Assembly: GCA_034638255.1 (NCBI GenBank)
Contig: JAWPGT010000040.1
Location: 1-64,000 of the forward strand
Length of the DNA stretch: 64,000 bases
Reading direction: 5' to 3'
Source of the DNA: Coprinus comatus
Lineage: Eukaryota > Basidiomycota > Agaricomycetes > Agaricales > Agaricaceae
Below, one piece after another: positions 4,043 through 34,453 of this stretch. Made by a program: the position numbers and the translations under genes. The stretch's first letter is position 1, and every line of letters starts with the position of its first letter. The notes under the pieces are model-generated. The model was not told the DNA's origin, searched no databases, and saw only the letters and a list, made by a program, of their open reading frames with translations.

Positions 4043-4567
4043 TGTTATAATCTTGCCTATACCTCCGTTTTGGTATAGACGATGCTACGATGGATCTCTT
4101 CAAGATGCTCGTAGGAGGAGAACGTCTACTCAGACTGAGACTATTTTCATTTCAGGGGACGACCTCCACAGTACTCGGACTGTAGATCACAGGTGTTCCT
4201 TACTAGTAAGCCGTTCGTGCAAGAGTTAGAGCTGACTCCAGTTCTAGGTATCAAGTTAAGGGCGATGAACGAGATAGAGTAGAAGCAACTTAGAGTATTA
4301 AGCTGAAGCTTAATCTCTGTCGCTGTCCATGTATTTATACAACTACGAGTACAGGTTGTAGGCTATGCTTGATACATGTGAGACAGGAGAGTGAAACTAT
4401 CTACAGCTGAAACGGTGAGTGAAACGACAAGTGGAAGTCCGTAGAAAGTACTAGTCCGAGGCTATACGAAACAGTAGTCCAAGGCTATGTGAAACGAGTA
4501 AGAGAAAGTACACTATCGTCCATCATTAGTTCTAATGATTAGTCGTGATAAATATGAAACCGTAACA
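4043..4567 (-). repeat. Gypsy-A 3' LTR, 525 bp
   Basis: Plus-strand sequence begins tgttataatc and ends ccgtaaca. It matches 12,469-12,988 apart from a 5-bp insertion. The left copy of the target duplication ATAAG lies immediately outside. Confidence 0.95.
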
Positions 4568-4835: not shown

Positions 4836-6326
4836 TCATCTACTCGGCGGTTGTCTTTGCTCATCTCGATAGGTGACTCGGTTAGGTGGCAATCTGGGGT
4901 TGACCCATGGTCTGGCATCTCCTCGATAGTTTCCATCGTTCTCCAATTGGCAGGAAAGGGACACTCGTTTGTAAGAGGAGCGAGGGTTCGACGAGCCAGA
5001 ATTCGATCCGAAGTGGGATGAGTGGTTAACAGATAGTAGTGGTGAATTCGGGGTTTCGGTTCTCATCGAGACGTCGAGGGAGAGGAGTGAGGAGGGAGGA
5101 AGTATGTCCAACACGATGAAATTGTAGTCCATGAGCTTTCTGGGTGCCAAAGATCTCGGGAGTGATTTGATCTTGAGCTCTTGTAAGTGCAATGGGAGTG
5201 GCTGGTTCCAGGGCTCGGGAGTATTGAGTCGAGAGACAATGACTGGGGATGTGGGTCGATTCTTGCAAGTCCAGGAATAATGTCCCATGGTGTTGCAGAA
5301 TCGGCATTGGTAGTCAGGGCATGACGATCCAATGTGTCCGACTAATCCACAGACAATGCAACCGTAATCGTAACACTTCTTTTCTTCGTCAGTGAACTGG
5401 TTGTAGACCAGTAAGGGAATATCCTTCTTCATGATATCTTCCTTCAACTTGTAGACCGGGAACCTTCCAAATCGTTGCTCAAAATCTCCAGAACCGATGA
5501 TCTTATCAGCCAGTTCCTTTAATGACGATGCATAGTGAACTGCTCTTGACGATTCGAATGGTGGGTTGGAGATATTTCGTAAGATACGGGCCTCTCGTCG
5601 GTTTGGGGGATGGTAAAGAGCGGGCGTGGTGTATCGATACGGATATCTGGAACCAAGGTTGGCGAATGGATGGTCTGGGGCGATTGGATAGGTATTGGGG
5701 ATGTCGGTAAGGAGATTGGCGGGAGGAACCTGGCTAGCTGGGAGGCTGGGGTTCTCACGTCCAACATTTCTAGGAACATTCGATCCCGTTGGGTCATCTG
5801 GTCGTGGAGGGTTGGTTGTGGGGGTAGAGGCTTCTGAGATCTCCGATGCACGGGCGAGGTACTCGGTAACGGTCTCCCCGAGTTGTCGAACGAAGTATAA
5901 TTGTGCCAAGCGACCGGGTGCGGAGGTTGGAGCATATCGTTCTGCTCGTGCCGTCGACGCAATGTGGGTGAGGACATTCCAGAGTTCATAGAGTTTCTCG
6001 AAATATGGAAGGGAGAGAAACTCGGCATTGGATCCAGCTGGTAACTCTCGTGGTGCCTCTCCATCCTCGTGGTAGGAGAGCATGTTTGGATGTCCAACTC
6101 CCCTTCTCCAGTTATAGTGATTTCCCCATTCCGATGTACTCGAATTATGAATGGAGGGGGTGGCAGGTGCGCTTCTCGGGTGAATTTCCGTCGCAAATAC
6201 TGGTTCAGGCGAGTTACCATCTGACCTAGAGGGTGCAGTGGTCGGTCGTTCAATGAGGGGAGAGACTGCGTCTGGAGTTGCGATGCGGGGTATGGGGTGA
6301 GCAATGGGTGTCTCTGTTTGATCCAT
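4836..6326 (-). CDS. Gypsy-A extra ORF 3b with tandem CCHC zinc knuckles, function unknown
   Basis: 496 codons from an ATG at 6326, in a different frame from 3a. A Pro/Ser-rich N-terminus is followed by a helical segment (YFEKLYELWNVLTHIAS, residues about 108-124), a second folded segment near 265-325, and two adjacent CCHC knuckles, CIVCGLVGHIGSSC and CRFCNTMGHYSWTC, both C-x2-C-x4-H-x4-C. A low-complexity tail follows. Gypsy-B has an ORF in the same position with a similar LW..L.H segment and two knuckles, so the gene is older than either element. The knuckles suggest RNA or single-strand nucleic acid binding, that is, a second nucleocapsid-like protein besides Gag. Confidence 0.7.
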   Translation of the reverse strand: MDQTETPIAHPIPRIATPDAVSPLIERPTTAPSRSDGNSPEPVFATEIHPRSAPATPSIHNSSTSEWGNHYNWRRGVGHPNMLSYHEDGEAPRELPAGSNAEFLSLPYFEKLYELWNVLTHIASTARAERYAPTSAPGRLAQLYFVRQLGETVTEYLARASEISEASTPTTNPPRPDDPTGSNVPRNVGRENPSLPASQVPPANLLTDIPNTYPIAPDHPFANLGSRYPYRYTTPALYHPPNRREARILRNISNPPFESSRAVHYASSLKELADKIIGSGDFEQRFGRFPVYKLKEDIMKKDIPLLVYNQFTDEEKKCYDYGCIVCGLVGHIGSSCPDYQCRFCNTMGHYSWTCKNRPTSPVIVSRLNTPEPWNQPLPLHLQELKIKSLPRSLAPRKLMDYNFIVLDILPPSSLLSLDVSMRTETPNSPLLSVNHSSHFGSNSGSSNPRSSYKRVSLSCQLENDGNYRGDARPWVNPRLPPNRVTYRDEQRQPPSR

Positions 6327-6724
6327 GGTAGGTGAATGGCATTGAATCTTGCCAGGACGATGGCTGCAGCAAGTTGGGGTTCTTCAATCAGAGTTGTTCC
6401 AGGTGGGTAAGTACCACGAGCGATAAGAGTGTCAATGTGCAGGCGATTGAGAATGTGAGGAGGAATATCCTCGATAGCAGTATCAAGAAGAACTTGAACT
6501 TCTTCTGGATCGTCCAGTCGAAGTTGGTTAGGATCAAAAGCTGGATTGAAAGCAAGAGGAGTATTGATAGCTCCTGTTGTAGATGCAGTTCGAGGGGGTG
6601 TGGTTGCTGGTGACGGAAAGGTATCGTTGGTGGTTGAGCTTAGGCTCGGTGTGGAAGATGAGTGAGAGGAGGGCGAGTATTCAAGAGGAGAGGGGCCTGA
6701 GGTAGAGTCTTGTTGTTGGGTCAT
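5519..6724 (-). CDS. Gypsy-A extra ORF 3a in env position, Pro/Ser-rich, function unknown
   Basis: 401 codons starting at the ATG (6724-6722) that overlaps the pol stop codon as ATGA. The first 75 residues are Ser/Thr/Pro-rich. Residues about 75-205 look like a folded region (for example the stretch PFIIRVHRNGEITITGEG). The rest is Pro-rich and overlaps ORF 3b in another frame for 808 nt. There is no signal peptide or membrane segment, so it is not a retroviral-type envelope. It may be a separate protein, or the N-terminal part of one product joined to 3b by a frameshift. Confidence 0.6.
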   Translation of the reverse strand: MTQQQDSTSGPSPLEYSPSSHSSSTPSLSSTTNDTFPSPATTPPRTASTTGAINTPLAFNPAFDPNQLRLDDPEEVQVLLDTAIEDIPPHILNRLHIDTLIARGTYPPGTTLIEEPQLAAAIVLARFNAIHLPWIKQRHPLLTPYPASQLQTQSLPSLNDRPLHPLGQMVTRLNQYLRRKFTREAHLPPPPFIIRVHRNGEITITGEGELDIQTCSPTTRMERHHESYQLDPMPSFSPFHISRNSMNSGMSSPTLRRRHEQNDMLQPPHPVAWHNYTSFDNSGRPLPSTSPVHRRSQKPLPPQPTLHDQMTQRDRMFLEMLDVRTPASQLARFLPPISLPTSPIPIQSPQTIHSPTLVPDIRIDTPRPLFTIPQTDERPVSYEISPTHHSNRQEQFTMHRH

Positions 6725-9700
6725 TTATATCTGCGAGGGGGGGTAGAGAGTGTCTTCTTTGGAGGAGCCCTTTTAAGTGAAAGGCGATGGTTCTTCTGGT
6801 ATTCTCCAAACAGTTCTTTTGCTGAATCTGAAACATTCTCTTCTGGTTCCCAAGTATTCTCTGAGTCAGGAAATCCCTTCCATTTGATCAAATACTTCAT
6901 CTTGTTTCTACTCCTTTTGTGATTAATGATTGCTTCGACTTCCCAGTGTTCTTCTCCATCTATCAAATCAGGGATGGTTTCAGAGGAAGGCTTGTTTGGG
7001 TTGATCTCGTTTTGAACTGCGGGTTTCAACAGAGCCACATGAAACGTATCATAGATCTTCCATGAAGTTGGTAGAAGAAGCTGATAAGTCAGAGGTCCTT
7101 TGCGTTTTAGGATCTTGAATGGACCTTGACGTTTCGGCTTGATCTTCGATGATTGGTATTGGATGGGAAGGTTCTTCGCATTTAGATAAACTTCATCCCC
7201 TTCATTATAGGTTGGATAATGAGGGCGTTTGACACGAGAAGCTATCACTTTAGCTGCGGATTGATAGGCTAGCAGTGCTTCGTGTCTGAAACGATCAAGT
7301 TTTCGAACATGATCATCGACTGATGGTGCACCAGATTCTTCCATGACATTGGGGAAGGATGGTGGATTTGTTCCAGTCATAATTTCTAGTGGTGATCGTT
7401 TGTTGGCGGCATGGGGACGGGAGTTGTAACTGAATTCGAGAAGTGGAAGTGCGTCGACCCAGTCATTCGGTTGGTTGTTGCAGTAGATCGAGAGATATGT
7501 TTCAATCTCTTGATTAGCTCGTTCTGTTGCACCATCTGTTTGGGGATGGTATGCCGTAGAAGGTTTCCAGTTGATCTGGAGCATCTCAAAGAACTTTTGG
7601 GCAGCTTTAGAAGCAAAATGAGGATTGCGATCTGAGACAATAGTGTTGGGGGTACCAAACCGTTTGTAGACATTGTCGATCAGGAGTTTTGAGATATTGG
7701 CGAAGGTACAGGTTTTCGACGTTGGACAGAGTATTATCCCCTTCGATAATCCGCGATCTATCACGGATAATATAGAATCAAATTTTCTGCAAGGAGGGAG
7801 ATCGGTGATTAAGTCCATAGCAATATTGCCAAAAACACGCATGGATTCGGATGGAGGAAGTGGTTGGAATGGAGGTTTTGCAGGATTCCGATCAATCTTG
7901 AATTGTTGGCATTGTGGACAGGCTTTGACATAGTTGGTAATGAAATCGCGCATTCCAGGCCATTTCACTATTAACTGAATTCGTCTTAATGTTTCATCTA
8001 TTCCAGGGTGTCCTGCGGAATGATGATCATGATACTGTGCTAGAAGCCGTTGTTTCTCCTTCAGAGTGGGTTCTTGGGCAATTAAGGCAGGTTCAGTTGA
8101 AGTGGCGTTTAAGAATAGCTTGTTTGGTAAAACCACAATGTCCACATTTTCTTCGGCAGAGTCAAAGTTATGATCTGGTCGTCTAGAGAGTGCATCTGCA
8201 GCAGGAATTTCTTTTCCTGGTTTGTGTTTTATCACAAAGTTGTATTTCTGCAGTTCAGCCCATGTGCGAGCTTGACGACGTGACAGCTTCTGCGAATCTT
8301 GCCAAAAACGGAGATTGTTGTGATCACTGTGCACAGTTACTATATGCGGTGATCCCAGTAGGTAGTGGCGCCAGTCATCAAAAGCTTGTTTGATCGCAAG
8401 GAGTTCTTTGTCCGGAGTGGGATAGTTGCGTTCCGCAGGTCCAAGGGATTTAGAACGGAATGCACAAGGACGAGTAACTCCGTTTTCATCAGTTTGACAT
8501 AGAACACCGCCCGTTGCAAAGTCAGAAGCATCTGTTTCGACATGGAATGGTTTGTGGGGATCGGGAGTGAGAAGGATAGATCCGTTTGCAAACATGTCCT
8601 TAACAGTGTTAAAAGCTTCTTCTGCTTCTGGGGTCCATTTAAATGCTACCGATTTGCGTAGAAGGTCATTTAGAGGACGGGTGATATTGGCGTAGTTCCT
8701 GATGAATTTTCGGTAGAAGTTTGCAAATCCTAAGAACTTTCTAACTTCGCGTTGTGATGTTGGTGTAGGCCATTCTGCAATTCCAGCAAGTTTGTCTTCT
8801 GACATGGTGATACTGTTCTGGCTTATTGTCATTCCTAGGAATTCTATGGAGGTTTTCTCGAATTCACATTTCTCAGTCTTGAGATAAAGATCGTTTTCTT
8901 GGACTCTTTTTAGAACTTCAAGAGTCATCTTGTTAAGATCTTGCTTGTTATCAGAGAAAATGAGAATGTCGTCCATATAGACAATAACTGCTGTACAACC
9001 AGGTTTGTCAATGAGATCTCGGAAGATATGATCCATCATTGCCTGGAACGTTGCAGGAGAATTTGTCATTCCAAAGAACATAACAGTGGGTTCGAAAAGA
9101 CCGAATGGAGTTTTGAATGCTCCTTTCCATTGGTCTCCATCAAAGATGCGAACGTTGTTATATCCAAGACGAACGTCCATTTTGGTGAAGTATTTAGCTC
9201 CACGGAGGCGGTCCATAATTGAGCTAACATTAGGAATGGGATAGGCGTTTTTCACAGTGTGGGAATTGAGGTAGCGATAATCTTGACATGGTCTGAGAGA
9301 TTTTCCATCTTTCTTGTTGACGAAAAAGAATGGTGATGCCATAGGGGATTTAGATGGTCGGATATATCCTTTGGCTAGGTTTTCATCGAGAAAGGTCTTT
9401 AATTCATCCATTTCAGCCGGTGCGAGGCGATATGGTTTGTAAGACTTTGGAGTGAAGGTTTCTTTTAGATCAATGCGATGATCACAAGGTCGTGATGGAG
9501 GGAATCGTTCTGAGGCCTTCTTGTCAAAGACAGGAAGATATTTCCATAATGTTCTAGGAACTATTTCCTTTGGATCGGAAGATGTGGCTTTTGCATGCTT
9601 TTGAGATATAAGTTGGGATGCAGAAGTTTTGGCATTGATTTGTATGAGGCGGCCAGCCAATCCAGTGTCAAGGGTATCAGGGAGCGATTGTGCAGCAATG

Positions 9701-10401
9701 CGGAGGTTTTTAGGAACATCAATTGGGTCTTCACTGTAGCAGGTGACTTCGTTGATTGTGATGGAATTTTCGAGTTGGGAGCAGGAGATGGTTCTAGAAG
9801 ATGGTGAACGCCATTGGAATGTTTTGGCAGTCCAATCAATGTCGGGATTGTACTGTTCCAAAAAGGAAAACCCTAGAATGGCGGGGTGTTTTCCAATTCC
9901 AATAACATAGGCATCTGTCTTGATGTTTCGACCATCAATGATACATTCCACAACTACTTTCTCAGTGATTGTTCCACTGATGTTTTCTGTTCCATCAACG
10001 TTCGTAACAGCGATTGGGGGTTCCACAGGGATTCGTTGGAGGTTAAGGGAGCGTGCAGTTTTCTCGGAAACGAAGTTTCCTTGAGCTCCTGAATCAATCA
10101 GGGCATTGAGGGTGGCGATCTGGTGGGAGCGGTGATTTTGAAGATAGATGGGTAGATAAATAGATTTTTCGTTGCGGGACAGGATGAGAGGAATAACGGA
10201 AATGTTCACTGGTCGTGAATTGTCTGGTCCGGGAGAGTAAATAGGGTCTGGTATGTCCATTGTCTTTGAGGTAGAGGAGTGAGTAGTACTAATGTCCGAT
10301 TCATCGTCTGTAAAGGAGAGATTGTCTGAGTCTTGAGAGTCTTCATGAATCACCGAAAGGATAGCGGAGGCTGGATGGGTTCGACTTGTCGCCTTAAGCA
10401 A
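6721..10401 (-). CDS. pol: Gypsy-A Pol polyprotein (protease, RT, RNase H, integrase, chromodomain)
   Basis: About 1226 codons, uninterrupted. Aspartic protease motif DSGA near residue 103; reverse transcriptase with YMDD at about 475-478; RNase H with the TDAS motif near 630; integrase zinc-binding H-H-C-C near 820-870 and a D-D-E core (AMDLITD, IVSDRNPHF, ATERANQE); C-terminal chromodomain (KYLIKWKGFPDSENTWEPEE). The chromodomain places it among chromoviruses, which target the element to modified histones. The frame has no ATG near its start and lies -1 relative to gag, so it is probably made by frameshifting at the gag end. Its TGA overlaps the ATG of the next ORF (ATGA, 6724-6721). Confidence 0.95.
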   Translation of the reverse strand: MLKATSRTHPASAILSVIHEDSQDSDNLSFTDDESDISTTHSSTSKTMDIPDPIYSPGPDNSRPVNISVIPLILSRNEKSIYLPIYLQNHRSHQIATLNALIDSGAQGNFVSEKTARSLNLQRIPVEPPIAVTNVDGTENISGTITEKVVVECIIDGRNIKTDAYVIGIGKHPAILGFSFLEQYNPDIDWTAKTFQWRSPSSRTISCSQLENSITINEVTCYSEDPIDVPKNLRIAAQSLPDTLDTGLAGRLIQINAKTSASQLISQKHAKATSSDPKEIVPRTLWKYLPVFDKKASERFPPSRPCDHRIDLKETFTPKSYKPYRLAPAEMDELKTFLDENLAKGYIRPSKSPMASPFFFVNKKDGKSLRPCQDYRYLNSHTVKNAYPIPNVSSIMDRLRGAKYFTKMDVRLGYNNVRIFDGDQWKGAFKTPFGLFEPTVMFFGMTNSPATFQAMMDHIFRDLIDKPGCTAVIVYMDDILIFSDNKQDLNKMTLEVLKRVQENDLYLKTEKCEFEKTSIEFLGMTISQNSITMSEDKLAGIAEWPTPTSQREVRKFLGFANFYRKFIRNYANITRPLNDLLRKSVAFKWTPEAEEAFNTVKDMFANGSILLTPDPHKPFHVETDASDFATGGVLCQTDENGVTRPCAFRSKSLGPAERNYPTPDKELLAIKQAFDDWRHYLLGSPHIVTVHSDHNNLRFWQDSQKLSRRQARTWAELQKYNFVIKHKPGKEIPAADALSRRPDHNFDSAEENVDIVVLPNKLFLNATSTEPALIAQEPTLKEKQRLLAQYHDHHSAGHPGIDETLRRIQLIVKWPGMRDFITNYVKACPQCQQFKIDRNPAKPPFQPLPPSESMRVFGNIAMDLITDLPPCRKFDSILSVIDRGLSKGIILCPTSKTCTFANISKLLIDNVYKRFGTPNTIVSDRNPHFASKAAQKFFEMLQINWKPSTAYHPQTDGATERANQEIETYLSIYCNNQPNDWVDALPLLEFSYNSRPHAANKRSPLEIMTGTNPPSFPNVMEESGAPSVDDHVRKLDRFRHEALLAYQSAAKVIASRVKRPHYPTYNEGDEVYLNAKNLPIQYQSSKIKPKRQGPFKILKRKGPLTYQLLLPTSWKIYDTFHVALLKPAVQNEINPNKPSSETIPDLIDGEEHWEVEAIINHKRSRNKMKYLIKWKGFPDSENTWEPEENVSDSAKELFGEYQKNHRLSLKRAPPKKTLSTPPRRYK

Positions 10402-10409
10402 AACCCGGC

Positions 10410-12095
10410 CTAAAAATTCAAATCTTCTTCATCTTCAATCAGTGTTGATGCCACTTTCATGAAGCTTCGGAATTTGTCAATTCCATTGTTCTTCTTCTTC
10501 TTTTTGAAAGGTCTGTTTGATGAGGATGATTTCTTGTTGCGGGGTTTGGAGGATGAGGATTGACGTTTGGGGCATTCTCGGAAGAAATGTCCAGCATTTC
10601 CACAGGAGAAGCAGACACCTCGGCTACGACGTTCCTTTTGTCGTTCCGTAAGAACCATTCCAAGAATTAATTCAGCTTCGTTTTCTTCGTCAGATTCTTC
10701 TGAATCGGAAGAGTCAAAATCTGGGATTCCGACTTCTTCGTATTCATCGTCATCATATCGTCCAGCAGCATCAATCTCCATTGGTTCTCCTTGGGGTAGT
10801 TTGGAGATGTTGAAGTTGTGTCTCTGGTAGCTTTTTGGAGGACGAGGTTTGTGGTTGATCTGACGGATAGCTTGATCAAGTTGGGTGGCAATGGTAGTCC
10901 ATTCATCGAATGTAGTTGGTTGAGGGTAGCGAAGAGCAATGGCTTCTCGGATTTTAGGAGGGAGGGTAGAACGGAATGAATCGACTTTGTAGGCGTCATT
11001 GTCAATTCCGGCTAAGTCAAGAAGTTGTTTGACATTATTAACATGATCTTCCATATTTTGCCAAGGAAGCATGCGATAAGTCTTGAGCTTGTTGCGAGCG
11101 TCGGCAGCTTCAGCATGGGGTTGAAAAGCTCGGTCAAGACTTGTGATGAAATCACGCCATGTTCCGTATCTGTATGTTCCAGCTTCATCTTTATGAGAAC
11201 TCAAGTATTGCCTTCGGAAATGACCACAACTCCCATGAGTTAATAATTGGAGAACAACTGGTATGGCTTGTTCTGTTTGGATAGCACCATTTCGAAAGTA
11301 TTTGGGTTTCGATTGTAGGGCGAGGATGATGCTATCTTTCCAATTCTCATAATGGATGGGTTTTCCATCAAACTTTTCGATTGGGATATCGAATTTTCCA
11401 TTGTAGTTTTCTTCGGTAGGTTGGTCGGTCATTCTGGAGGGAGGACGAGCTGGGTTTCTGGGTGTAGGTGATTGAGCACGAGAATGGGTTTGTGAATTTG
11501 AGTGGATAGAAGCGTCGTCAGGTGATGAGGGATTGGGATTGGGAGGATGAGTTTGGATAGGTGATGATGTAGGGAATAAATCTAGAGCAATGATCTTGTC
11601 GCGGACTGCGTTTCTGAGGTTTGCAAGTTCGTTGCTGTAGAATAGAGTTTTGGTTTTGTCGACTTCGATATCGGTTGTAAGATTGGGGTTTTCAACGGTG
11701 GGTTGATAGAGTCCGTCAACTACCAAGTATAGGTCGTAGGTGTTGACTCGGATAAGAAGTGAGGTGGATTTATAGGGTAGTAGGAAACGGAAGATGTAGT
11801 GGATGTCGGCAGCGATTTGGGAACTTCCTGCTTCGTTGAGTTCTTGAAATCGTTTCCAGGTATCAACAAGACAACTTTGTTGGTCGTTTGAAAGTTTGAT
11901 TCCGGGTGGAAGGTACCTCCTGATTGAAGGAGTTCCAAAGGTTGTGCTGACCTCTGGGATTCGTACGGCGGAGTCAAAGAGATCAACTAGTTCTTGTTCG
12001 TTTGCGTCTCTGGATATGGGTGGTTGTCTGGAAGACGAGGGAGTGGAAGAGGAAATTCGGTGGGAGGCAATTGTGGAAACTTGGGGTGCTGCTTG
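10410..12095 (-). CDS. gag: Gypsy-A Gag (capsid/nucleocapsid) with AUG-less N-terminal extension
   Basis: The frame is open from 12,095 to the TAG at 10,412-10,410. The first ATG is at 11,432-11,430 (protein start MTDQPTEE). From there the product is about 340 residues: a retrotransposon capsid-type helical region, an acidic Asp/Glu stretch, one CCHC knuckle (CFSCGNAGHFFREC) and a Lys/Ser-rich tail. The 221 codons upstream of that ATG, in frame, have convincing protein character, with mixed hydrophobic and charged segments (for example RFLLPYKSTSLLIRVNTYDL) and then a Pro/Ser linker, but contain no Met. Either initiation uses a non-AUG codon upstream or the extension is never made. Gag packages the element RNA in cytoplasmic particles. 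pol follows in the -1 frame. Confidence 0.9.
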   Translation of the reverse strand, partial: QAAPQVSTIASHRISSSTPSSSRQPPISRDANEQELVDLFDSAVRIPEVSTTFGTPSIRRYLPPGIKLSNDQQSCLVDTWKRFQELNEAGSSQIAADIHYIFRFLLPYKSTSLLIRVNTYDLYLVVDGLYQPTVENPNLTTDIEVDKTKTLFYSNELANLRNAVRDKIIALDLFPTSSPIQTHPPNPNPSSPDDASIHSNSQTHSRAQSPTPRNPARPPSRMTDQPTEENYNGKFDIPIEKFDGKPIHYENWKDSIILALQSKPKYFRNGAIQTEQAIPVVLQLLTHGSCGHFRRQYLSSHKDEAGTYRYGTWRDFITSLDRAFQPHAEAADARNKLKTYRMLPWQNMEDHVNNVKQLLDLAGIDNDAYKVDSFRSTLPPKIREAIALRYPQPTTFDEWTTIATQLDQAIRQINHKPRPPKSYQRHNFNISKLPQGEPMEIDAAGRYDDDEYEEVGIPDFDSSDSEESDEENEAELILGMVLTERQKERRSRGVCFSCGNAGHFFRECPKRQSSSSKPRNKKSSSSNRPFKKKKKNNGIDKFRSFMKVASTLIEDEEDLNF

Positions 12096-12240
12096 CTAAA
12101 GGCAGCCCTTCTTCTTTAAGAGGGTATGTTCTCAGCCACTACTTGCTTAAGGTAGACCTGCTCGACGGCGAGGTATGTTATTAGCTACTACTTGCTTAAG
12201 GTAGTCCTGCTCGACGGCGAGGTATGTTATCAGCCTGGAT
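12085..12240 (-). repeat. Three tandem units of 49 bp in the Gypsy-A leader
   Basis: Units start with ggtatgtt on the plus strand at 12,123, 12,172 and 12,221, and each complete unit contains a cttgcttaaggtag-type core. The most gag-proximal unit is diverged and contains the TAG that opens the gag extension frame. Gypsy-B has a triple repeat of unrelated sequence in the same place. Confidence 0.75.
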
Positions 12241-12456
12241 CTTGATCCTATGCGTGAGGGTTTGTGCTAGTTTTCCAAATAATGACGGTTGCGGGTTAGG
12301 CGGTTGTCAGAGGAATAAAAGCAAGGGGTTGCAGAGACTCTGATTAGGAGTTCGCACGGAGTTGGGTTGGGGAGGGTGACGAGTGCAGAGACCTGGGTTA
12401 GAGGTTCGCGGAGGAAGACGATGACAGATATCCTGGTTAGGGATTCGTCGAGTTGT

Positions 12457-12466
12457 AGCTTAATAC
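12457..12466 (-). promoter_or_regulatory. Primer-binding site, self-priming type (Gypsy-A)
   Basis: Two nucleotides inside the 5' LTR the minus strand reads GTATTAAGCT. This is perfectly complementary to AGCTTAATAC in the same LTR at 12,725-12,716, just downstream of the TATA box. No tRNA 3'-end complement (a TGG start) is present. This is the arrangement known from the Tf1/sushi branch, where the folded 5' end of the RNA primes reverse transcription. Confidence 0.65.
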
Positions 12467-12468
12467 AA

Positions 12469-12988
12469 TGTTATAATCTTGCCTATACCTCCGTTTTGGT
12501 ATAGACGATGCTACGATGGATCTCTTCAAGATGCTCGTAGGAGGAGAACGTCTACTCAGACTGAGACTATTTTCAGGGGACGACCTCCACAGTACTCGGA
12601 CTGTAGATCACAGGTGTTCCTTACTAGTAAGCCGTTCGTGCAAGAGTTAGAGCTGACTCCAGTTCTAGGTATCAAGTTAAGGGCGATGAACGAGATAGAG
12701 TAGAAGCAACTTAGAGTATTAAGCTGAAGCTTAATCTCTGTCGCTGTCCATGTATTTATACAACTACGAGTACAGGTTGTAGGCTATGCTTGATACATGT
12801 GAGACAGGAGAGTGAAACTATCTACAGCTGAAACGGTGAGTGAAACGACAAGTGGAAGTCCGTAGAAAGTACTAGTCCGAGGCTATACGAAACAGTAGTC
12901 CAAGGCTATGTGAAACGAGTAAGAGAAAGTACACTATCGTCCATCATTAGTTCTAATGATTAGTCGTGATAAATATGAAACCGTAACA
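12469..12988 (-). repeat. Gypsy-A 5' LTR, 520 bp
   Basis: Partner of 4043-4567. It carries the element promoter (TATA box on the minus strand at 12,760-12,754). The right copy of the ATAAG duplication follows at 12,989-12,993. Confidence 0.95.
12754..12760 (-). promoter_or_regulatory. TATA box of the Gypsy-A promoter
   Basis: The minus strand reads TATAAAT, the only good TATA box in the LTR. The sequence complementary to the primer-binding site begins 35 nt downstream, at 12,725. Gypsy-B shows exactly the same 35-nt spacing, which suggests RNA synthesis starts there. Confidence 0.65.
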
Positions 12989-25832: not shown

Positions 25833-26039
25833 TGTTACGGTTTCATATTTATCATGACTAATCATTAGAACTAATGATGGACGATAGTGTACTTTCTCTT
25901 CTATCTGTTTTACATAGCCTTGGACTAGTGTTTTGTATAGCCTTGGACTAGTACTTTCTATGGACTTCCACTTGTTGTTTCACTCACTGTTTCAGCTGTA
26001 GATAGTTTCACTCTCCTGTCTCACATGTATCAAGCATAG
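25833..26039 (-). repeat. Gypsy-A-type LTR, left part, interrupted by Gypsy-B
   Basis: Starts tgttacggtttcatatttat like the Gypsy-A LTR read on the plus strand. It continues at 34,302-34,453 after the Gypsy-B insertion. The reunited LTR is flanked by CAAAC (25,828-25,832 and 34,454-34,458). About 165 bp in its middle is missing compared with 12,469-12,988. It is a solo LTR inserted in a DUF6532-like gene. Confidence 0.92.
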
Positions 26040-26674
26040 TGTTACGAGTCCACCCAAACCACCGGCCCGTACCACCACCACCGAGGAAGACTTGTTCGCC
26101 ATCTTCCCCGAACTCATTCCCAATGACGACACCATGGACGACTCCGCCTGACATACCATTCCCCGGTGACATCACGGTGACATCACTATGACATCGCTAT
26201 GACCTAACGTCGAACTAAGTATGAGACTCCACTTATGCTTAGAAGTATACATTTCCCCAGCTCCAGTATTAGTTATCTGTTTCGTCATTTTACTCCTGTT
26301 GACTAATCTTTCATTGTATATGGAGTAAATAGTCCCCGACCCCGATGTCTCACCTACTCCTGTTGACAGTTCTAGCATTGTGTATGGAGTAGATTATAAA
26401 GCGATGACGAGTATTAGGTTATAATTAGTTAGTAGCTATTATTAGGTACATCCCTAGAATAGTATAAATACTCGATGTATTAGACGATTAAAGCCTCAAG
26501 CTTTAATCTCTTCTGTTGTAGCCCTTATACATCTCTGTCTCCATACCTCTCGGTCACTAGGTTGAAAGGCCTTGAGATTGCAGCAGAGTGTTTATTGATC
26601 GCACGTTCCTACACGACTGCACTCTAGCGTTTAAGTTCCAGGAGTGTTCAGCTTAACGGTTCGTGGTCATAACA
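26040..26674 (+). repeat. Gypsy-B 5' LTR, 635 bp
   Basis: Begins tgttacgagtcc and ends gtcataaca. It contains the TATA box at 26,463. The first 112 bp include the last codons of the extra ORF as it exists in the 3' LTR. Confidence 0.95.
26463..26469 (+). promoter_or_regulatory. TATA box of the Gypsy-B promoter
   Basis: TATAAAT. The self-primer sequence begins 35 nt downstream, at 26,498, the same spacing as in Gypsy-A. Confidence 0.65.
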
Positions 26675-26676
26675 TT

Positions 26677-26688
26677 AGATTAAAGCTT
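26677..26688 (+). promoter_or_regulatory. Primer-binding site, self-priming type (Gypsy-B)
   Basis: Two nucleotides after the 5' LTR the sequence AGATTAAAGCTT is perfectly complementary to AAGCTTTAATCT at 26,498-26,509 in the LTR. No tRNA-type site is present. The site is longer than in Gypsy-A, but its position and 2-nt spacer (TT) are the same. Confidence 0.7.
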
Positions 26689-27038
26689 CCCTTTCACTGG
26701 ACCGGTAGGGTTATCCGGTCTCTCCCCCTTGGAACCGAACGGAGGATTGTCGAAACCCGGCAGTCAATCGATTCCCGTCATCTTGGAACTTGAAACGGCG
26801 TTACTTGTTCTGGTCTAACCGGTACCTCTTAGTGGTATACTGGTAGTCGTTATACCCGCTAATCCCTGGTATAAACGCGTCGCAGCTCACAAAGTGATAC
26901 TCCTTCGCCGGAGCAAAGTGGGAAGTCTAGGTGTTTGAAATCCTAGCCAACCGGACCGCGGTGGGTTTGTACATCGCTGAAATCTACGCATTTAGTAAGT
27001 CGTAGTCAGGCCCCTTTAATTAGGACCTCCTGGCCGTC

Positions 27039-27142
27039 AAGCTCTAAGCGAGCGCAAGCTGTTAAGTCAGTAAAAGCTCTAAGCGAGCACTCAAGCTGTT
27101 AGTCAGTAAAAGCTCTAAGCGAGCATTATCAAGCTGTCAGGC
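27039..27142 (+). repeat. Three tandem units of 35-36 bp in the Gypsy-B leader
   Basis: Units starting aagctctaagcgagc at 27,039, 27,074 and 27,110. They lie about 100 bp upstream of the gag extension frame, the same relative position as the 49-bp triplicate in Gypsy-A but unrelated in sequence. Confidence 0.85.
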
Positions 27143-27237
27143 AGCAGTTCTCCCTTTTCCATTCCCAATCCATTCCTTACACCACCACACTCCTTTATAA
27201 AAACCTCTACAAATTCTTGGGCAACCACCAACTCTGA

Positions 27238-28906
27238 ATCATCATTTCACGACAACGAAGAACCAGTCAAACATCAGTTCCTAAACCGGAATTTGATAGG
27301 TCACAACTTCAACGAAGCAGATCTCGTTACCGAGAAACCCCTTCCACCGAACCCTTCCCAGTTCACATCCCCGGACCGATCCAAGCCTCTACCTCACAAG
27401 ACTCTGGACGCTCCACCTCGTCATTTTATACACAACCACCAGTACCTCCCCAATCTCAGCTTTTCGGAGAACCTAGTCCTATACAACGACAAGGTTCGCA
27501 ATCTAGCGAAACTTCAAGACAATACAGGGAAAAACCACAACAATCTTCATCTGAAGAAGACGACTCAGACGACGACCCCCCGCCAATCCCTCCTCGAAGA
27601 CCTAGAGTTACTATCCCGTCTCGAATCCATACACCAATCCCAACTCCCGCCAACCCAACAACTCCACACACTCCGTCATTACCCCCGGCTCCACCAAATC
27701 CCTCCACACCTACTACAAACAGCTCGTCAAGCTCAAATTCAAAGATGCCCTCCACAACTACAGTCCCAGCACTCAAACTCCCAGTTCCCCCACCATTCGC
27801 TGGAGACACAGCATCCTACAGTCATTGGAAACAACGACTTGGAATCTACTATGCAGCAGATCAAGCCCGATTCCATGACAGCGAAACAAAGATCCTATAC
27901 ACTCTTTCCCTTATGGTTGGACCGGCAGCCACATGGGCACATGCCTTCACAGAAAGCGCATACGACGACAAGACTTCAACCTACAAATTGGGAACCTTCA
28001 CAGCATTCACCAAAGCCTTGGACACAAGCTTCCGCTCATCCACCCATGTCTCAGATGCCATGGCCCGGATTACCAAGTTTAAACAAGGAATGCGCAACGT
28101 ACACGAGTACATCGCAGAATTCGAATCCCTCGCACTTGAAGCACAAATCACACAAGACACACTCAAAATCCATCTCTTCAAAATGGGTCTTGAACCCACA
28201 ATTGGAATGTATGCCATCAGAGCCATGCCAGCCGATACCTATGAAGCATGGAAAGGCGCTGCCCGCGCAGCCAGCCACATACTTCAGTCTGAACGAGACT
28301 ATCGTCAGACACACTATCCCCAAAGGAACCCTCAAATACGTCAAAACCCTCGCTATCGCCAGGCTCAAAACTTTCGTCAACCGCAGTCTATCCCGCGTTA
28401 CGTTCAACCACCCGTGGTCGCAAAAGACCCGTACGCCATGGATGTCGACTACATCGAAGAGGCAATCAATAACCTTCGCCTCAACGGTAAGAGAGGAACT
28501 CTGTAACATACACGATGAACAGGAGGACTTTGAAGAAGAAGCCCCTCAGCCATCTCAAATTGATCCCGGAGAAATCCTTAATCAATTCATCGACAGAGTC
28601 TTCACAAGTGAACAAAAGGAATTATTCAGAGATCGACTCTGTTTCCTCTGCAAGAAACCAGGCCATTTCGCCAACCGATGCCCAGCTCGACGAACTGGCC
28701 CATCACCTAATCGCCCGAGGACAATCCCTCGCCAGGCATACAACCAGAGGAAGGCCCCGACCAAAAATCGAAACCCCCATCTACGACGCCAGATCAACAA
28801 CCTCATTGAAACCGCCCCTGAAGAAGAAGTAGCAGACGTCTACGATTACTTCTCCCAAGATAACATGAACGACGATTTCAACAGCGAAATCAAGGATTTT
28901 GCTTAA
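27238..28906 (+). CDS. gag: Gypsy-B Gag with AUG-less N-terminal extension, frame broken near 28,490
   Basis: After a TGA at 27,235 one frame is open with no ATG for 169 codons (Arg-rich start, then a Ser/Pro-rich acidic linker including SSSEEDDSDDDPPPIPPR). It then reaches the first ATG at 27,745 (start MPSTTTVPALKLPVPPPF). The capsid region follows (FAGDTASYSHWKQRLGIYYA, TKALDTSFRSSTHVSDAMAR), but the frame ends at TAA 28,504. The nucleocapsid part continues in the next frame to 28,906: an acidic segment, a CCHC knuckle CFLCKKPGHFANRC and a basic tail. A 1-nt insertion or 2-nt deletion near 28,490 explains the break. The long frame that starts at 27,293 and underlies the capsid region is a shadow until 28,490. 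Confidence 0.85.
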
Positions 28907-31900: not shown

Positions 31901-32434
31901 ATCTCATCCCGATTTGAGTACCTCAAACAAACAAGAGAACAGGCTCAAGAAGCTCATGAACATATGCGTCAACTTATGGCCGCTCGATCGAACAGACCAT
32001 TACCAACCCTAGAACCAGGACAACGGGTCTGGCTCGATAACAGAAACCTCCAAATCAAATACAAATCGAAGAAGATAGCACAACGCCGAGAAGGCCCCTT
32101 CAAAATTCTACGCAAAATAGGAACAACCACCTATGAGCTAGAGTTACCAATGACGTGGAGGATCCACAACAAATTCCATATCCAACTCCTCACTCCTGTC
32201 AAAGAGAATGACGTATATGGCAAAATGTTTACAACACCACCTCCAGACATCGTAAATGGAGAAGAAGAATACGAAGTCGAAAATATCCTGAACCACCAAG
32301 GAACCCCGAGGACAAGACGGTATCTTGTTCATTGGAAAGGATACTCTTCTACAGAAGATTCTTGGGAGCCTGAATCGAATCTTACCAATTCAGGAGCAAT
32401 CCTAAAAGATTATAAAAAGAGACATGGACTCTGA
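28907..32434 (+). pseudogene. pol: Gypsy-B Pol polyprotein, two frameshifts
   Basis: Protease (LALIDSGAGGNFIDPALV, about 29,083) in one frame. A 1-nt deletion near 29,500 moves reading to the reverse transcriptase frame (YMDD at about 30,130). A second 1-nt deletion in an A-run near 30,255 moves it to the frame carrying the rest of RT, RNase H (IECDASLYATGAVL), integrase (zinc-binding HHCC, catalytic SMDMITDLPPD, VISDRGPQF, GSTERFNQE) and a C-terminal chromodomain (RRYLVHWKGYSSTEDSWEPE). The TGA at 32,432-32,434 overlaps the next ORF, whose ATG is at 32,424. pol begins in the -1 frame relative to the end of gag, at the heptamer GGATTTT (28,894-28,900). The domain order and chromodomain match Gypsy-A. 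Confidence 0.9.
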
Positions 32435-33818
32435 CCAAATCCCCAGTTCAATGCTCTACTCTCCTCCCAATACACCCATCACTACTATCACCAATGCCCC
32501 CTCCACCATACTCCCAACCCAAACCTTGGCTCCTACCAATGGTTCCACCACACGCATCCCTCTCCCGTATTCCCCTGACACTCAGCTTGTTCGATTCCGA
32601 CTATCATGCGAAACATACATCGCTGACCTCGAATCCGTTCATCGAAACAACTCTGAACGCCGCACACTCCTTCACACCCTTCGGGAAGACCTATCTGCTT
32701 ACTTTCCTCAAAGAGCTAAGGAACTGTACCTTTGGGACACCTTGGCCCACACTTGTCAAAAACTCCAATCGAATGGTTTTTCACAACCAGAGCATGCTAG
32801 CCTCCACCAGCTTTTCCAGGATCTTGACAGATCCCGAAATTCAAGACCTTCGCTCTTCAGCGTTAGTTTTGGACCACGATATGTTAGCACTAGCAACCTT
32901 GAGACTCGAAGGGACGGAATCCTTTCTAGAGACTCGGAAGCGACTCACACCACTCCTCAGGAACCACTACATGCTCGAACAATGGGCCCGGAACCTGACC
33001 ACTCAGGAAAGCTACTACCTGACCAACCTACTATCCCACCAAACGTTCCCAGCCAATGTCCCCAGACCCCATACATGCCACCAATTAAATCCACACAGCG
33101 TCGGTGCCCTGCATGTAACGGACATAACCACTTCCTACCACATTGCGAAAGTTACTTCTGCAACCACTGTAAGCAAACTGCTCCAGGCCACTATGCCAAG
33201 CATTGCTCCCGCAACAAGTACAAAGGCCTCCCTTCCAACACCATCCCGACCTCCGTTATTGAGGAGCACTACATCCAAAACCCTAAACTCCGCCCTGCCG
33301 ATAAAACGGACAGTAACATTCTACAAGGAGATAGGACACTTTTACAACAGCAACCGACACAACGACCAATCAATCGAGGGACAACGCGTCCTAGCATTCA
33401 TGAACCACCAGAGATACGCCGCTCACGATCGACAGGACCCCGTACCCCGATTCCGACTGGATCTCGCAGTGAAAGACATCATCGATGCCCCCCTCTCTCG
33501 CCAAGCACGCCGCCGCTCACGCCAGAGTACTGGATCAAATCAAGAAGACTTTGGACGAAACTTTGGAGAAGACTACGACCCCGTCGCCGAGGCCAACATC
33601 ACTGGCTCCCCTTGCCGAGACCTCTGAAGTTGAGAATGAGGACATTCCCCTTAAGGAAGGAAGTAATGTTACGAGTCCACCCAAACCACCGGCCCGTACC
33701 ACCACCACCGAGGAAGACTTGTTCGCCATCTTCCCCGAACTCATTCCCAATGACGACACCATGGACGACTCCGCCTGACATACCATTCCCCGGTGACATC
33801 ACGGTGACATCACTATGA
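32424..33818 (+). CDS. Gypsy-B extra ORF 3b with tandem zinc knuckles, function unknown
   Basis: Starts 8 nt before the pol stop codon. Residues about 50-130 form a helical region with the phrase KELYLWDTLAHTCQKL, resembling the LYELWNVLTHIA region of Gypsy-A ORF 3b. Two zinc knuckles follow near 33,105-33,210: CPACNGHNHFLPHC (C-x2-C-x4-H-x4-C) and CNHCKQTAPGHYAKHC, the second with two extra residues. After about 33,300 the frame becomes Arg/Pro-rich and is probably a shadow of the frame that carries the true C-terminus. The frame runs on into the 3' LTR to 33,818. Confidence 0.65.
   Translation: MDSDQIPSSMLYSPPNTPITTITNAPSTILPTQTLAPTNGSTTRIPLPYSPDTQLVRFRLSCETYIADLESVHRNNSERRTLLHTLREDLSAYFPQRAKELYLWDTLAHTCQKLQSNGFSQPEHASLHQLFQDLDRSRNSRPSLFSVSFGPRYVSTSNLETRRDGILSRDSEATHTTPQEPLHARTMGPEPDHSGKLLPDQPTIPPNVPSQCPQTPYMPPIKSTQRRCPACNGHNHFLPHCESYFCNHCKQTAPGHYAKHCSRNKYKGLPSNTIPTSVIEEHYIQNPKLRPADKTDSNILQGDRTLLQQQPTQRPINRGTTRPSIHEPPEIRRSRSTGPRTPIPTGSRSERHHRCPPLSPSTPPLTPEYWIKSRRLWTKLWRRLRPRRRGQHHWLPLPRPLKLRMRTFPLRKEVMLRVHPNHRPVPPPPRKTCSPSSPNSFPMTTPWTTPPDIPFPGDITVTSL
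32494..33778 (+). CDS. Gypsy-B extra ORF 3a, overlapping frame continuing into the 3' LTR, with 2-bp deletion
   Basis: A second frame is open from the ATG at 32,494 to 33,627, inside ORF 3b. The stretch LTDPEIQDLRSSALVLDHDM and what follows looks like genuine helical protein. Near 33,495 it lacks 2 bp compared with the truncated copy at 42,480. Correcting for that, reading passes into the frame ending MDDSA at 33,778, which contains ARVLDQIKKTLDETLEK and an acidic C-terminus. The last 37 codons lie inside the 3' LTR. In the copy at 42.5 kb this frame is continuous and its length differs only by one codon in frame, so this end of the gene is real. Function unknown. Confidence 0.55.
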
Positions 33819-34301: not shown

Positions 34302-34453
34302 CATAGCCTACAAATCTACAGTCTGAGTACTGTGGAGGTCGTCCCCTGAAAGTAGTCTCAGTAAGAGTAGACGTTCTCCTCCTACAAGCACCTTGAAGAG
34401 GTCCATCGTAGCATCGTCTATACCGAAACGGAGGTATAGGCAAGAACTTAACA
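34302..34453 (-). repeat. Gypsy-A-type LTR, right part
   Basis: Continuation of 25,833-26,039, beginning with the second CATAG copy and ending cttaaca. The phrase ggaggtcgtcccctgaaagt matches the Gypsy-A LTR. CAAAC follows at 34,454-34,458. Confidence 0.9.

What the first reader, a model, noticed from the sequence alone, without database searches (positions are those of the whole stretch)
11433..12725. Gypsy-A: about 1.29 kb without a single ATG on the sense strand, including a 221-codon in-frame Gag extension
Reading the plus strand line by line from 11,433 to 12,725 (the inferred RNA start), the triplet CAT never occurs, so the sense RNA has no AUG in any frame until the Gag AUG at 11,432. 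About 15-20 would be expected by chance, and ATG on the opposite strand is frequent there. The last 663 nt are also open in the Gag frame and encode sequence that looks like a real protein. Splicing inside the element cannot supply an AUG, because none exists upstream. Two explanations fit: selection keeps scanning ribosomes moving to the Gag AUG, or a non-AUG codon starts a longer Gag, as in the glyco-Gag of some retroviruses. The protein-like quality of the extension favours the second for at least some product.
Basis: partly seen in the sequence, partly recalled or inferred. Interest (0 to 1): 0.82.

Follow-up and report, generated by a model that had tools for sequence, protein, structure and literature searches.

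The report
AUG-free leader encodes extended Gag
A fungal jumping gene keeps the first 1.3 kb of its RNA free of ordinary start codons, yet the end of that stretch clearly encodes protein, so it very probably makes a second, longer version of its coat protein from an unusual start codon.

Summary
From the inferred RNA start (12,725) to the Gag AUG (11,432) the sense strand has 0 ATG against 8.8 expected (0 of 2,000 shuffles). The last 663 nt are open in the Gag frame and are real protein: dN/dS among copies is 0.13-0.23 in that frame (depending on the copies used), about 1 and 1.6-3 in the others. The element offers no usable AUG, so a non-AUG codon must start it. The best candidate is AUU at 12,071-12,069 (ACA-AUU-G), intact in 44 of 44 loci covering it. 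The extension also lacks out-of-frame AUGs, beyond what its protein and codon usage predict (P=0.007), so ribosomes probably also scan through to the Gag AUG. AUG exclusion recurs in Gypsy-B, in this window, and in a third family, but not in a fourth; three other Gag families sampled lack it. Heavily decayed copies carry many AUGs. Coding constraint is shown only for A. Known parallels are RTBV, PEG10 and glyco-Gag; searches listed no fungal LTR-element case.

The parts
12469..12988 (-). Gypsy-A 5' LTR (520 bp); flanked with the 3' LTR by a 5-bp duplication CTTAT
   Evidence: Pairs with 4043-4567; the only difference is a 5-bp insertion in the 3' copy; flanks read
4043..4567 (-). Gypsy-A 3' LTR (525 bp)
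12753..12760 (-). TATAAATA promoter box; the last ATG before the AUG-free stretch (12751-12749) lies just downstream of it and upstream of the inferred RNA start
12716..12725 (-). Inferred RNA 5' end / self-primer AGCUUAAUAC
   Evidence: Complementary to the PBS; a like arrangement with different letters in Gypsy-B and in families C and D
12457..12466 (-). Primer-binding site, complementary to the element's own 5' end (Tf1-type self-priming)
11433..12725 (-). AUG-free leader: 0 AUG in 1,293 nt in any frame
12088..12106 (-). Short hairpin GCUGC-CUUUAGCAA-GCAGC just upstream of the candidate start; letters intact in every copy shown for it. Related hairpins lie in the tandem repeat 12123-12234. 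Function unknown
   Evidence: Alignment; folding of the wider region no better than shuffles (z 0.01)
12069..12071 (-). [quoted passage not shown]
   Evidence: 44 of 44 covering loci (one of them the window copy) keep AUU, -3 A and +4 G; the only in-frame near-cognate with both features among residues 1-58
11433..12095 (-). In-frame Gag extension (221 open codons; 213 from the AUU)
   Evidence: dN/dS 0.13 (15 copies), 0.15 (17 copies), 0.23 (all 20 open copies); other frames about 1 and 1.6-3; codon-position skew 5/1/22
10410..11432 (-). Gag from its AUG (340 aa; AGA-AUG-A), with a weak capsid match and a CCHC knuckle
   Evidence: Pfam Retrotrans_gag E 0.0097, zf-CCHC E 0.00047, both below Pfam's own cut-off
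6721..10428 (-). Pol ORF in the -1 frame (protease, RT, RNase H, integrase, chromodomain)
   Evidence: frame overlap read
26498..27744 (+). Gypsy-B: second AUG-free leader (0 AUG in 1,247 nt) ending at its Gag AUG (27745), with a 169-codon open Gag-frame extension from 27238

Best explanation
Gypsy-A is a chromodomain Ty3/Gypsy element with a self-priming layout whose unspliced RNA carries a 1.29-kb leader kept free of AUG in all frames. 40S subunits scan from the cap. A minority start at a near-cognate codon, most likely AUU at 12,071, and make a Gag with a 213-residue N-terminal extension (553 aa). The majority pass through the extension, where no AUG in any frame can trap them, and start at the Gag AUG (340 aa). 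Shown here: absence of AUG, open frame, protein-level purifying selection on the extension, AUG avoidance beyond amino-acid demand, conservation of the AUU, AUGs in decayed copies. Inferred: the RNA start, leaky scanning as the route, AUU as the actual start, the ratio of products, and the role of the extension (an N-terminal part plus a Pro/Ser-rich linker, in the place that matrix occupies in retroviral Gag).
For: 0 of 2,000 shuffles gave 0 ATG. Extension dN/dS in the Gag frame: 0.13 over 15 open copies, 0.15 over 17, 0.23 over all 20 open copies, 0.13 over the window copy plus 22 copies chosen only by low CpG decay; the other frames give 0.97-1.07 and 1.55-3.02 in the same sets. Variable non-CpG sites by codon position 5/1/22 in 12 young copies, against 2/5/6 in the adjoining leader and 13/13/18 in the LTR part. 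AUU with -3 A and +4 G in 44 of 44 covering loci, while other in-frame near-cognates among residues 1-58 have poorer context; synonymous change is also low around it (0.018-0.021 versus 0.05-0.18 downstream). Out-of-frame ATG 0 versus 3.6 expected with protein and codon usage held fixed (P 0.007). CpG sites, groups set blind to ATG: in 15 high-decay copies ACG>ATG 111 of 157 and other NCG>NTG 172 of 243, i.e. equal; in 22 low-decay copies 12 of 400 and 63 of 793. 16 of 24 Gypsy-B copies have no leader ATG, two have one, six decayed or divergent ones have 5-26. In family C, at 10 of 12 leader ATG positions another copy has ACG, and none is shared by all six copies. Upstream AUGs cannot serve: those at 12,751 and 12,798 stop after 6 and 4 codons.
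Against: No RNA, ribosome or peptide data. Family copies are not independent, so P values on copies are optimistic. In the low-decay copies ACG>ATG (12 of 400, 3.0%) is rarer than other NCG>NTG (7.9%) but no rarer than CG>CA (36 of 1,159, 3.1%), so depletion of new AUGs in young copies is only suggested. L038/L039 (one pair, 82% identical to the window copy) have an open extension but 12 leader AUGs and AUA in place of the Gag AUG. Family D has an extension-like open frame but several leader AUGs, one shared by all three copies. In B and C the extension shows no frame-specific constraint, so coding by the extension is not shown to be general. For B the out-of-frame test is uninformative (0.4 expected). 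No database protein resembles the A extension, and its fold is unknown (pLDDT 38).
Confidence: 0.8

Rival explanations
1. Only scanning matters: the leader is AUG-free so that ribosomes reach the Gag AUG; the open in-frame stretch is not translated.
For: AUG exclusion also covers about 630 nt upstream of the extension, and holds in B and C, where the extension lacks frame-specific constraint.
Against: Low dN/dS in one frame only and third-position variation in A are not expected of untranslated RNA.
Confidence: 0.05
2. Only the long Gag is made: a non-AUG codon (or internal entry) is the sole start and the Gag AUG at 11,432 is an internal Met.
For: The extension is constrained nearly as strongly as the first 20 Gag codons (0.15 versus 0.10).
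Against: It does not explain why out-of-frame AUGs are avoided inside the extension (P 0.007), nor the AUG-free leaders of B and C, which end at the AUG at the head of Gag.
Confidence: 0.1
3. The extension starts at an AUG on another mRNA: transcription from U3 or a host promoter, or splicing into the leader.
For: AUGs exist at 12,751, 12,798 and further upstream; the RNA start is inferred, not mapped.
Against: The two nearest upstream AUG frames are 6 and 4 codons long, and neither has a GT after its start codon (read). A spliced leader would not need to be AUG-free. In B the same order of TATA box, last ATG and primer holds. AUGs further upstream were not examined for splicing.
Confidence: 0.06
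4. Initiation at the extension is cap-independent (internal entry or shunting), with the AUG-free state needed only near the landing site.
For: Conserved hairpin and tandem repeats just upstream of the AUU; RTBV reaches its AUU by shunting (PMC5902531, passages).
Against: There is no short AUG uORF of the kind the RTBV shunt uses, because the leader has no AUG at all; the fold of 12,060-12,260 is no better than shuffles (z 0.01); AUG exclusion begins at the promoter and not at a landing site.
Confidence: 0.1
5. Chance or base composition.
For: The leader is G-poor (15%), which lowers the expectation to about 9.
Against: 0 of 2,000 shuffles in A and again in B; heavily decayed copies carry up to 14 ATGs.
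Confidence: 0.01

Closest known systems
RTBV (plant pararetrovirus) ORF I-II-III translation (PMC5902531, passages read)
   Same: AUU start preceded by a pyrimidine tract; about 900 nt of coding sequence without internal AUG so that ribosomes leak through to a downstream AUG
   Different: RTBV reaches the AUU by uORF-driven shunting and the AUU opens a separate ORF; here there is no AUG uORF and the AUU frame is the N-terminus of Gag itself
PEG10, a domesticated Ty3/Gypsy-like Gag of mammals (PMC2800197, passages read)
   Same: Gag made both from an upstream in-frame non-AUG codon (CUG) and from the downstream AUG
   Different: Extension of 34 aa, host gene, no long AUG-free leader described in the passages read; homology to sushi-ichi elements is from an abstract seen in the listing
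Glyco-Gag of murine leukaemia virus (PMC3423011, passages read)
   Same: N-terminally extended Gag from an in-frame non-AUG codon on unspliced RNA, next to normal Gag
   Different: CUG, 88 extra residues with a signal peptide; the A extension has no hydrophobic signal or anchor stretch (maximum 19-residue hydropathy 0.84)
Self-priming LTR elements Tf1/Tj1 (PMC4600332, passages read)
   Same: PBS complementary to the RNA's own 5' end
   Different: No AUG-free leader or Gag extension is mentioned in the passages read; Tj1 has a stop codon between Gag and Pol, A a -1 frame overlap
AUU-started N-terminal extensions of cellular genes: Cryptococcus ArgRS (PMC7049704, passages) and PTEN (PMC4892431, passages)
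   Same: AUU in good context (cccaccAUU in Cryptococcus) used to add an N-terminal extension
   Different: Cellular genes, not a mobile element's Gag

Membership tests
Chromodomain Ty3/Gypsy LTR retrotransposon (chromovirus) | LTRs, Gag, and Pol in the order PR-RT-RNaseH-IN with a C-terminal chromodomain | tested here: met
   LTR pair 99% identical; gag-asp_proteas, RVT_1, RT_RNaseH, Integrase_H2C2, rve (below cut-off) and Chromo hits in that order
Self-priming (Tf1-type) element | PBS complementary to the element's own RNA 5' end and not to a tRNA | tested here: met
   10-nt match in A and 12 in B just inside the LTR; 12 in C and 12-13 in D within 420 nt of the TATA box, LTR ends not mapped there. 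No tRNA comparison was made and priming itself was not tested
Non-AUG-initiated, N-terminally extended protein | Coding constraint upstream of the annotated AUG in the same frame | tested here: met
   dN/dS 0.13-0.23 versus about 1 and 1.6-3
Non-AUG-initiated, N-terminally extended protein | No in-frame AUG available upstream; conserved near-cognate codon in good context | tested here: met
   No AUG in any frame; ACA-AUU-G in 44 of 44 covering loci
Non-AUG-initiated, N-terminally extended protein | Ribosome initiation or peptide evidence for the extension | not testable with these tools
   no expression data
Gammaretroviral glyco-Gag | Extension carries a signal peptide or membrane anchor | tested here: not met
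   No hydrophobic stretch; maximum KD19 0.84
Gammaretroviral glyco-Gag | In-frame CUG start | tested here: not met
   No in-frame CUG among residues 1-70 of the extension; AUU is the good candidate
RTBV-type leaky scanning | Non-AUG start followed by an AUG-free stretch up to a downstream AUG | tested here: met
   Sequence layout only:
RTBV-type leaky scanning | Leader with short uORF and large stem-loop for shunting | tested here: not met
   No AUG in the leader; the stem-loop was tested only for 12,060-12,260, z 0.01

The most novel reading that the evidence does not exclude
A lineage of self-priming fungal Ty3/Gypsy elements keeps a rule that no AUG may occur between the RNA start and Gag. 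In Gypsy-A that AUG-free space has been colonised by a new matrix-like N-terminal Gag domain, translated only by leaky near-cognate (AUU) initiation, so that each particle contains a fixed minority of extended Gag. This would be a retrotransposon counterpart of the matrix addition seen in retroviruses.
Probability: 0.3. Interest if true: 0.78.

Novelty: new variant of a known kind. Interest (0 to 1): 0.63.

Why it matters
It gives a naturally replicated case (20 open copies of one family, two further AUG-free families, and decayed copies as a built-in control) in which both halves of leaky non-AUG initiation leave separate marks in sequence: coding constraint in one frame and AUG absence in all frames. 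An annotation that starts Gag at its AUG misses 213 residues. If general, Gag proteins of other LTR elements may be annotated too short, and the ratio of two Gag forms could be set by near-cognate initiation.

Tried and rejected
Database relatives: the search for homologous proteins with the 561-aa frame, the extension alone and a five-row alignment gave nothing. IMG/VR gave no relative, and PDB by sequence no credible one; the two hits are C4_nat_HFuse-7900 (E 0.0069) and a designed helical repeat protein (E 0.072). Pfam gave none for the extension. AlphaFold on the single sequence gave pLDDT 38 and was not used.

RNA structure as the reason for AUG exclusion: folding of 12,060-12,260 and of the B repeat region was no better than shuffles (z 0.01 and -0.87).

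Sequence homology of the extension between families: A's extension finds no credible match in B, C or D. B and C share one PFPxHIPxPIQAxTS stretch upstream of the AUG, but codon tests in B and C do not single out the Gag frame, so coding there was not claimed.

Membrane anchor (glyco-Gag-like): rejected on hydropathy.

CpG test: my first grouping (19 young, 21 old copies) was made with ATG counts in view and left out 4 loci. It gave a stronger contrast in the young (7 of 346 against 56 of 689; CG>CA 30 of 1,005). I replaced it by groups set only by CG>CA decay, which weakened the young-copy result.

Rows dropped: 45 of the 50 loci then held matched the A leader (5 gave no blastn match). L001 is the window copy itself. 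One search counted 37 distinct copies with at least 1,200 nt of leader (window copy included), leaving 8 out for coverage. One search used 41 of 44, dropping L023, L032 and L046. The codon tests used 12, 15 and 17 copies, picked mainly for an open extension, which slightly favours constraint; single pairs of more decayed copies gave higher ratios (0.69 for L018-L022, 0.45 for L029-L041), and 15 high-decay copies pooled gave 0.33, 0.82 and 0.99 in the three frames.
Full report
WHAT IS THERE. Gypsy-A lies on the minus strand between LTRs 12,469-12,988 and 4,043-4,567, which are identical but for one 5-bp indel, inside a 5-bp duplication CTTAT (flanks). Gag (AUG at 11,432) is followed by Pol in the -1 frame with protease, RT, RNase H, integrase and chromodomain matches. 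The genome is a 35.7-Mb assembly in 134 contigs. Host genes in the window include a condensin subunit (Cnd1) and a DUF6535 gene, so it is a eukaryote; I take it for a basidiomycete fungus from recall of where DUF6535 occurs, not from a call.

THE RNA START. A TATAAATA box begins at 12,760. At 12,725 begins AGCUUAAUAC, the reverse complement of 10 nt just inside the LTR. A like arrangement, with different letters each time, was found in Gypsy-B (12 nt), family C (12 nt, 2 loci) and family D (12-13 nt, 2 loci) (LTR ends were mapped only for A and B). This is the self-priming layout of Tf1 and Tj1 (PMC4600332, passages).

AUG EXCLUSION. From there to the Gag AUG the sense strand has no ATG, against 8.8 expected and 0 of 2,000 shuffles. 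Control stretches of the same element (U3, Gag, Pol, 3' region) have about as many ATGs as their shuffles or more. Gypsy-B repeats the pattern in the same window: 0 ATG in 1,247 nt, 7.0 expected, 0 of 2,000 shuffles. The two leaders are the longest ATG-free runs on their strands (1,319 and 1,270 nt, next 382 and 457). In both, the last ATG lies between the TATA box and the inferred start.

COPIES OF A. Of 37 copies with at least 1,200 nt of leader, 12 have no ATG; the number rises as identity to the window copy falls (Spearman -0.78). Of the 20 with an open extension, 8 have none, 6 have one, 2 have two, and four have more (L015 4, L021 6, L038 12, L039 12). L038 and L039 are one near-identical pair and have AUA at the Gag start. 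Of the 17 with a broken extension, 4 have none and the rest 1-14. Most ATGs stand where the window copy has ACG. With copies grouped only by CG>CA decay, 15 high-decay copies have ACG>ATG at 111 of 157 cells and other NCG>NTG at 172 of 243, so AUGs then arise freely. In 22 low-decay copies the figures are 12 of 400 and 63 of 793, but CG>CA is 36 of 1,159, as low as ACG>ATG. So this test shows relaxation in old copies and only suggests depletion in young ones. Four copies fell between. Cells are not independent, because copies share ancestry.

OTHER FAMILIES. Gypsy-B: of 24 copies aligned, 16 have no leader ATG, 2 have one (ACG>ATG), and 6 decayed or divergent ones (L070-L075) have 5-26. Family C: 12 leader ATG positions in six copies; none is shared by all, at 10 another copy has ACG, at one the others have GTG, and one is not covered by other copies. 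Family D: several ATGs, one shared by all three copies, so it is an exception. In Gag families E, F and G (three loci each) the longest ATG-free run before the first in-frame Gag AUG is 184-319 nt. AUG exclusion over about 1 kb is thus seen in three of four self-priming families sampled and not in three other Ty3 Gag families sampled; not every Gag family of the genome was looked at.

THE EXTENSION IS PROTEIN. In 12 young A copies the non-CpG variable sites of the extension fall on codon positions 1/2/3 as 5/1/22; the adjoining leader gives 2/5/6 and the LTR part 13/13/18. dN/dS in the Gag frame is 0.13 over 15 open copies, 0.15 over 17, 0.23 over all 20 open copies and 0.13 over the window copy plus 22 low-decay copies. 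The +1 frame gives 0.97-1.07 and the +2 frame 1.55-3.02 in these sets. In 15 high-decay copies the three frames give 0.33, 0.82 and 0.99. The pair window-L018 gives 0.26 and window-L038 0.22. A whole-genome search with the extension finds 59 matches; I saw none that looked like a separate gene, though not every fragment was checked. In B and C the same tests do not single out the Gag frame (B 0.53, 0.44, 0.78; C). B extension lengths differ only by threes (507, 510, 513 in 17 copies) while its upstream leader does not. Translation of the B and C extensions is therefore open.

THE START. Of the in-frame near-cognate codons in residues 1-58, only AUU at 12,071 has both A at -3 and G at +4, and all three features are kept in 44 of 44 covering loci, one of which is the window copy. 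Synonymous variation is low around it (0.018-0.021 in residues 1-28, 0.05-0.18 beyond), as expected if nucleotides there matter as well. An AUU is used as start by Cryptococcus ArgRS (PMC7049704, passages), by PTEN (PMC4892431, passages) and by RTBV ORF I (PMC5902531, passages).

WHY BOTH PRODUCTS. If only the long form were made, out-of-frame AUGs inside the extension would be harmless. They are absent: 0 against 3.6 in shuffles that keep the protein and its codon usage (P 0.007); in Gag itself 21 were found against 16.9. For B the same test is not informative (0.4 expected). An AUG-free coding stretch is what ribosomes scanning through it would require, as for RTBV, where about 900 nt without AUG carry ribosomes past an AUU (PMC5902531).

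WHAT THE EXTENSION DOES is not known. It has about 150 residues of mixed composition, then a Pro/Ser-rich linker, and no membrane segment; the structure prediction is unusable. Its place is that of matrix in retroviral Gag; that is an analogy only.

NOVELTY. Extended Gag from a non-AUG codon is known in MuLV (PMC3423011, passages) and PEG10 (PMC2800197, passages). Searches listed no paper that I recognised as a non-AUG Gag extension in a fungal LTR element; only listings were seen for most, and subscription papers are mostly not in that library. I rate it a new variant of a known kind.

Noticed in passing
26498-27744 (+): Gypsy-B shows an AUG-free leader of 1,247 nt; used as the main replication of the finding.
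   Followed up: yes
27119-28906 (+); L034 1522-3237: In Gypsy-B the +1 frame is stop-free across the extension and nearly all of Gag (572 codons in L034); with Gag-frame codons shuffled synonymously 5.0 stops are expected (P 0.001). Possibly a second overlapping ORF; no start codon or protein evidence.
   Followed up: partly
4836-6724 (-); 32406-33818 (+): Both Gypsy-A and Gypsy-B carry extra ORFs between Pol and the 3' LTR; A's has a weak zinc-knuckle match (zf-CCHC_2 E 0.0065), B's only a sub-threshold zinc-ribbon match (E 0.03). In A two long frames overlap (6724-5519 and 6383-4836).
   Followed up: no
4043-4567 (-): The only difference between the two A LTRs is a 5-bp insertion in the 3' LTR that creates an ATG in its R-U5 part, where it does not lie in the Gag leader.
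   Followed up: yes
12123-12234 (-), 12088-12106 (-): Tandem repeats of 49-nt spacing and a conserved hairpin with CUUAAG/CUUUAG loops just before the extension; CUUAAG is self-complementary, so a dimer or packaging signal is possible. Leader length differs by about 49-50 nt between copies; folding energy is not unusual.
   Followed up: partly
25833-26039 and 34314-34445: Gypsy-B appears to be inserted in an A-type LTR (94% identity) with a 5-bp duplication CATAG: nested insertions.
   Followed up: partly
L017, L022, L025-L027, L029, L030, L033, L038, L039, L041, L045, L048-L050: These old A copies decay strongly at CpG sites (CG>CA at 295 of 414 cells), and stops in old copies are mostly TGA, as expected from cytosine methylation; RIP was not tested.
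   Followed up: partly
L052, L053, L054: Family D has the self-priming layout (seen in L053, L054) and an extension-like open frame but AUGs in its leader; why it escapes the rule is unexplained.
   Followed up: partly
L077-L085: Ty3 Gag families E, F and G of the same genome have no long AUG-free stretch before their Gag AUG.
   Followed up: yes
10410-10428 (-): Gag and Pol frames overlap by about 18 nt in the -1 frame at GAAUUUUUAG, a run of U just before the Gag stop; a possible frameshift site.
   Followed up: no
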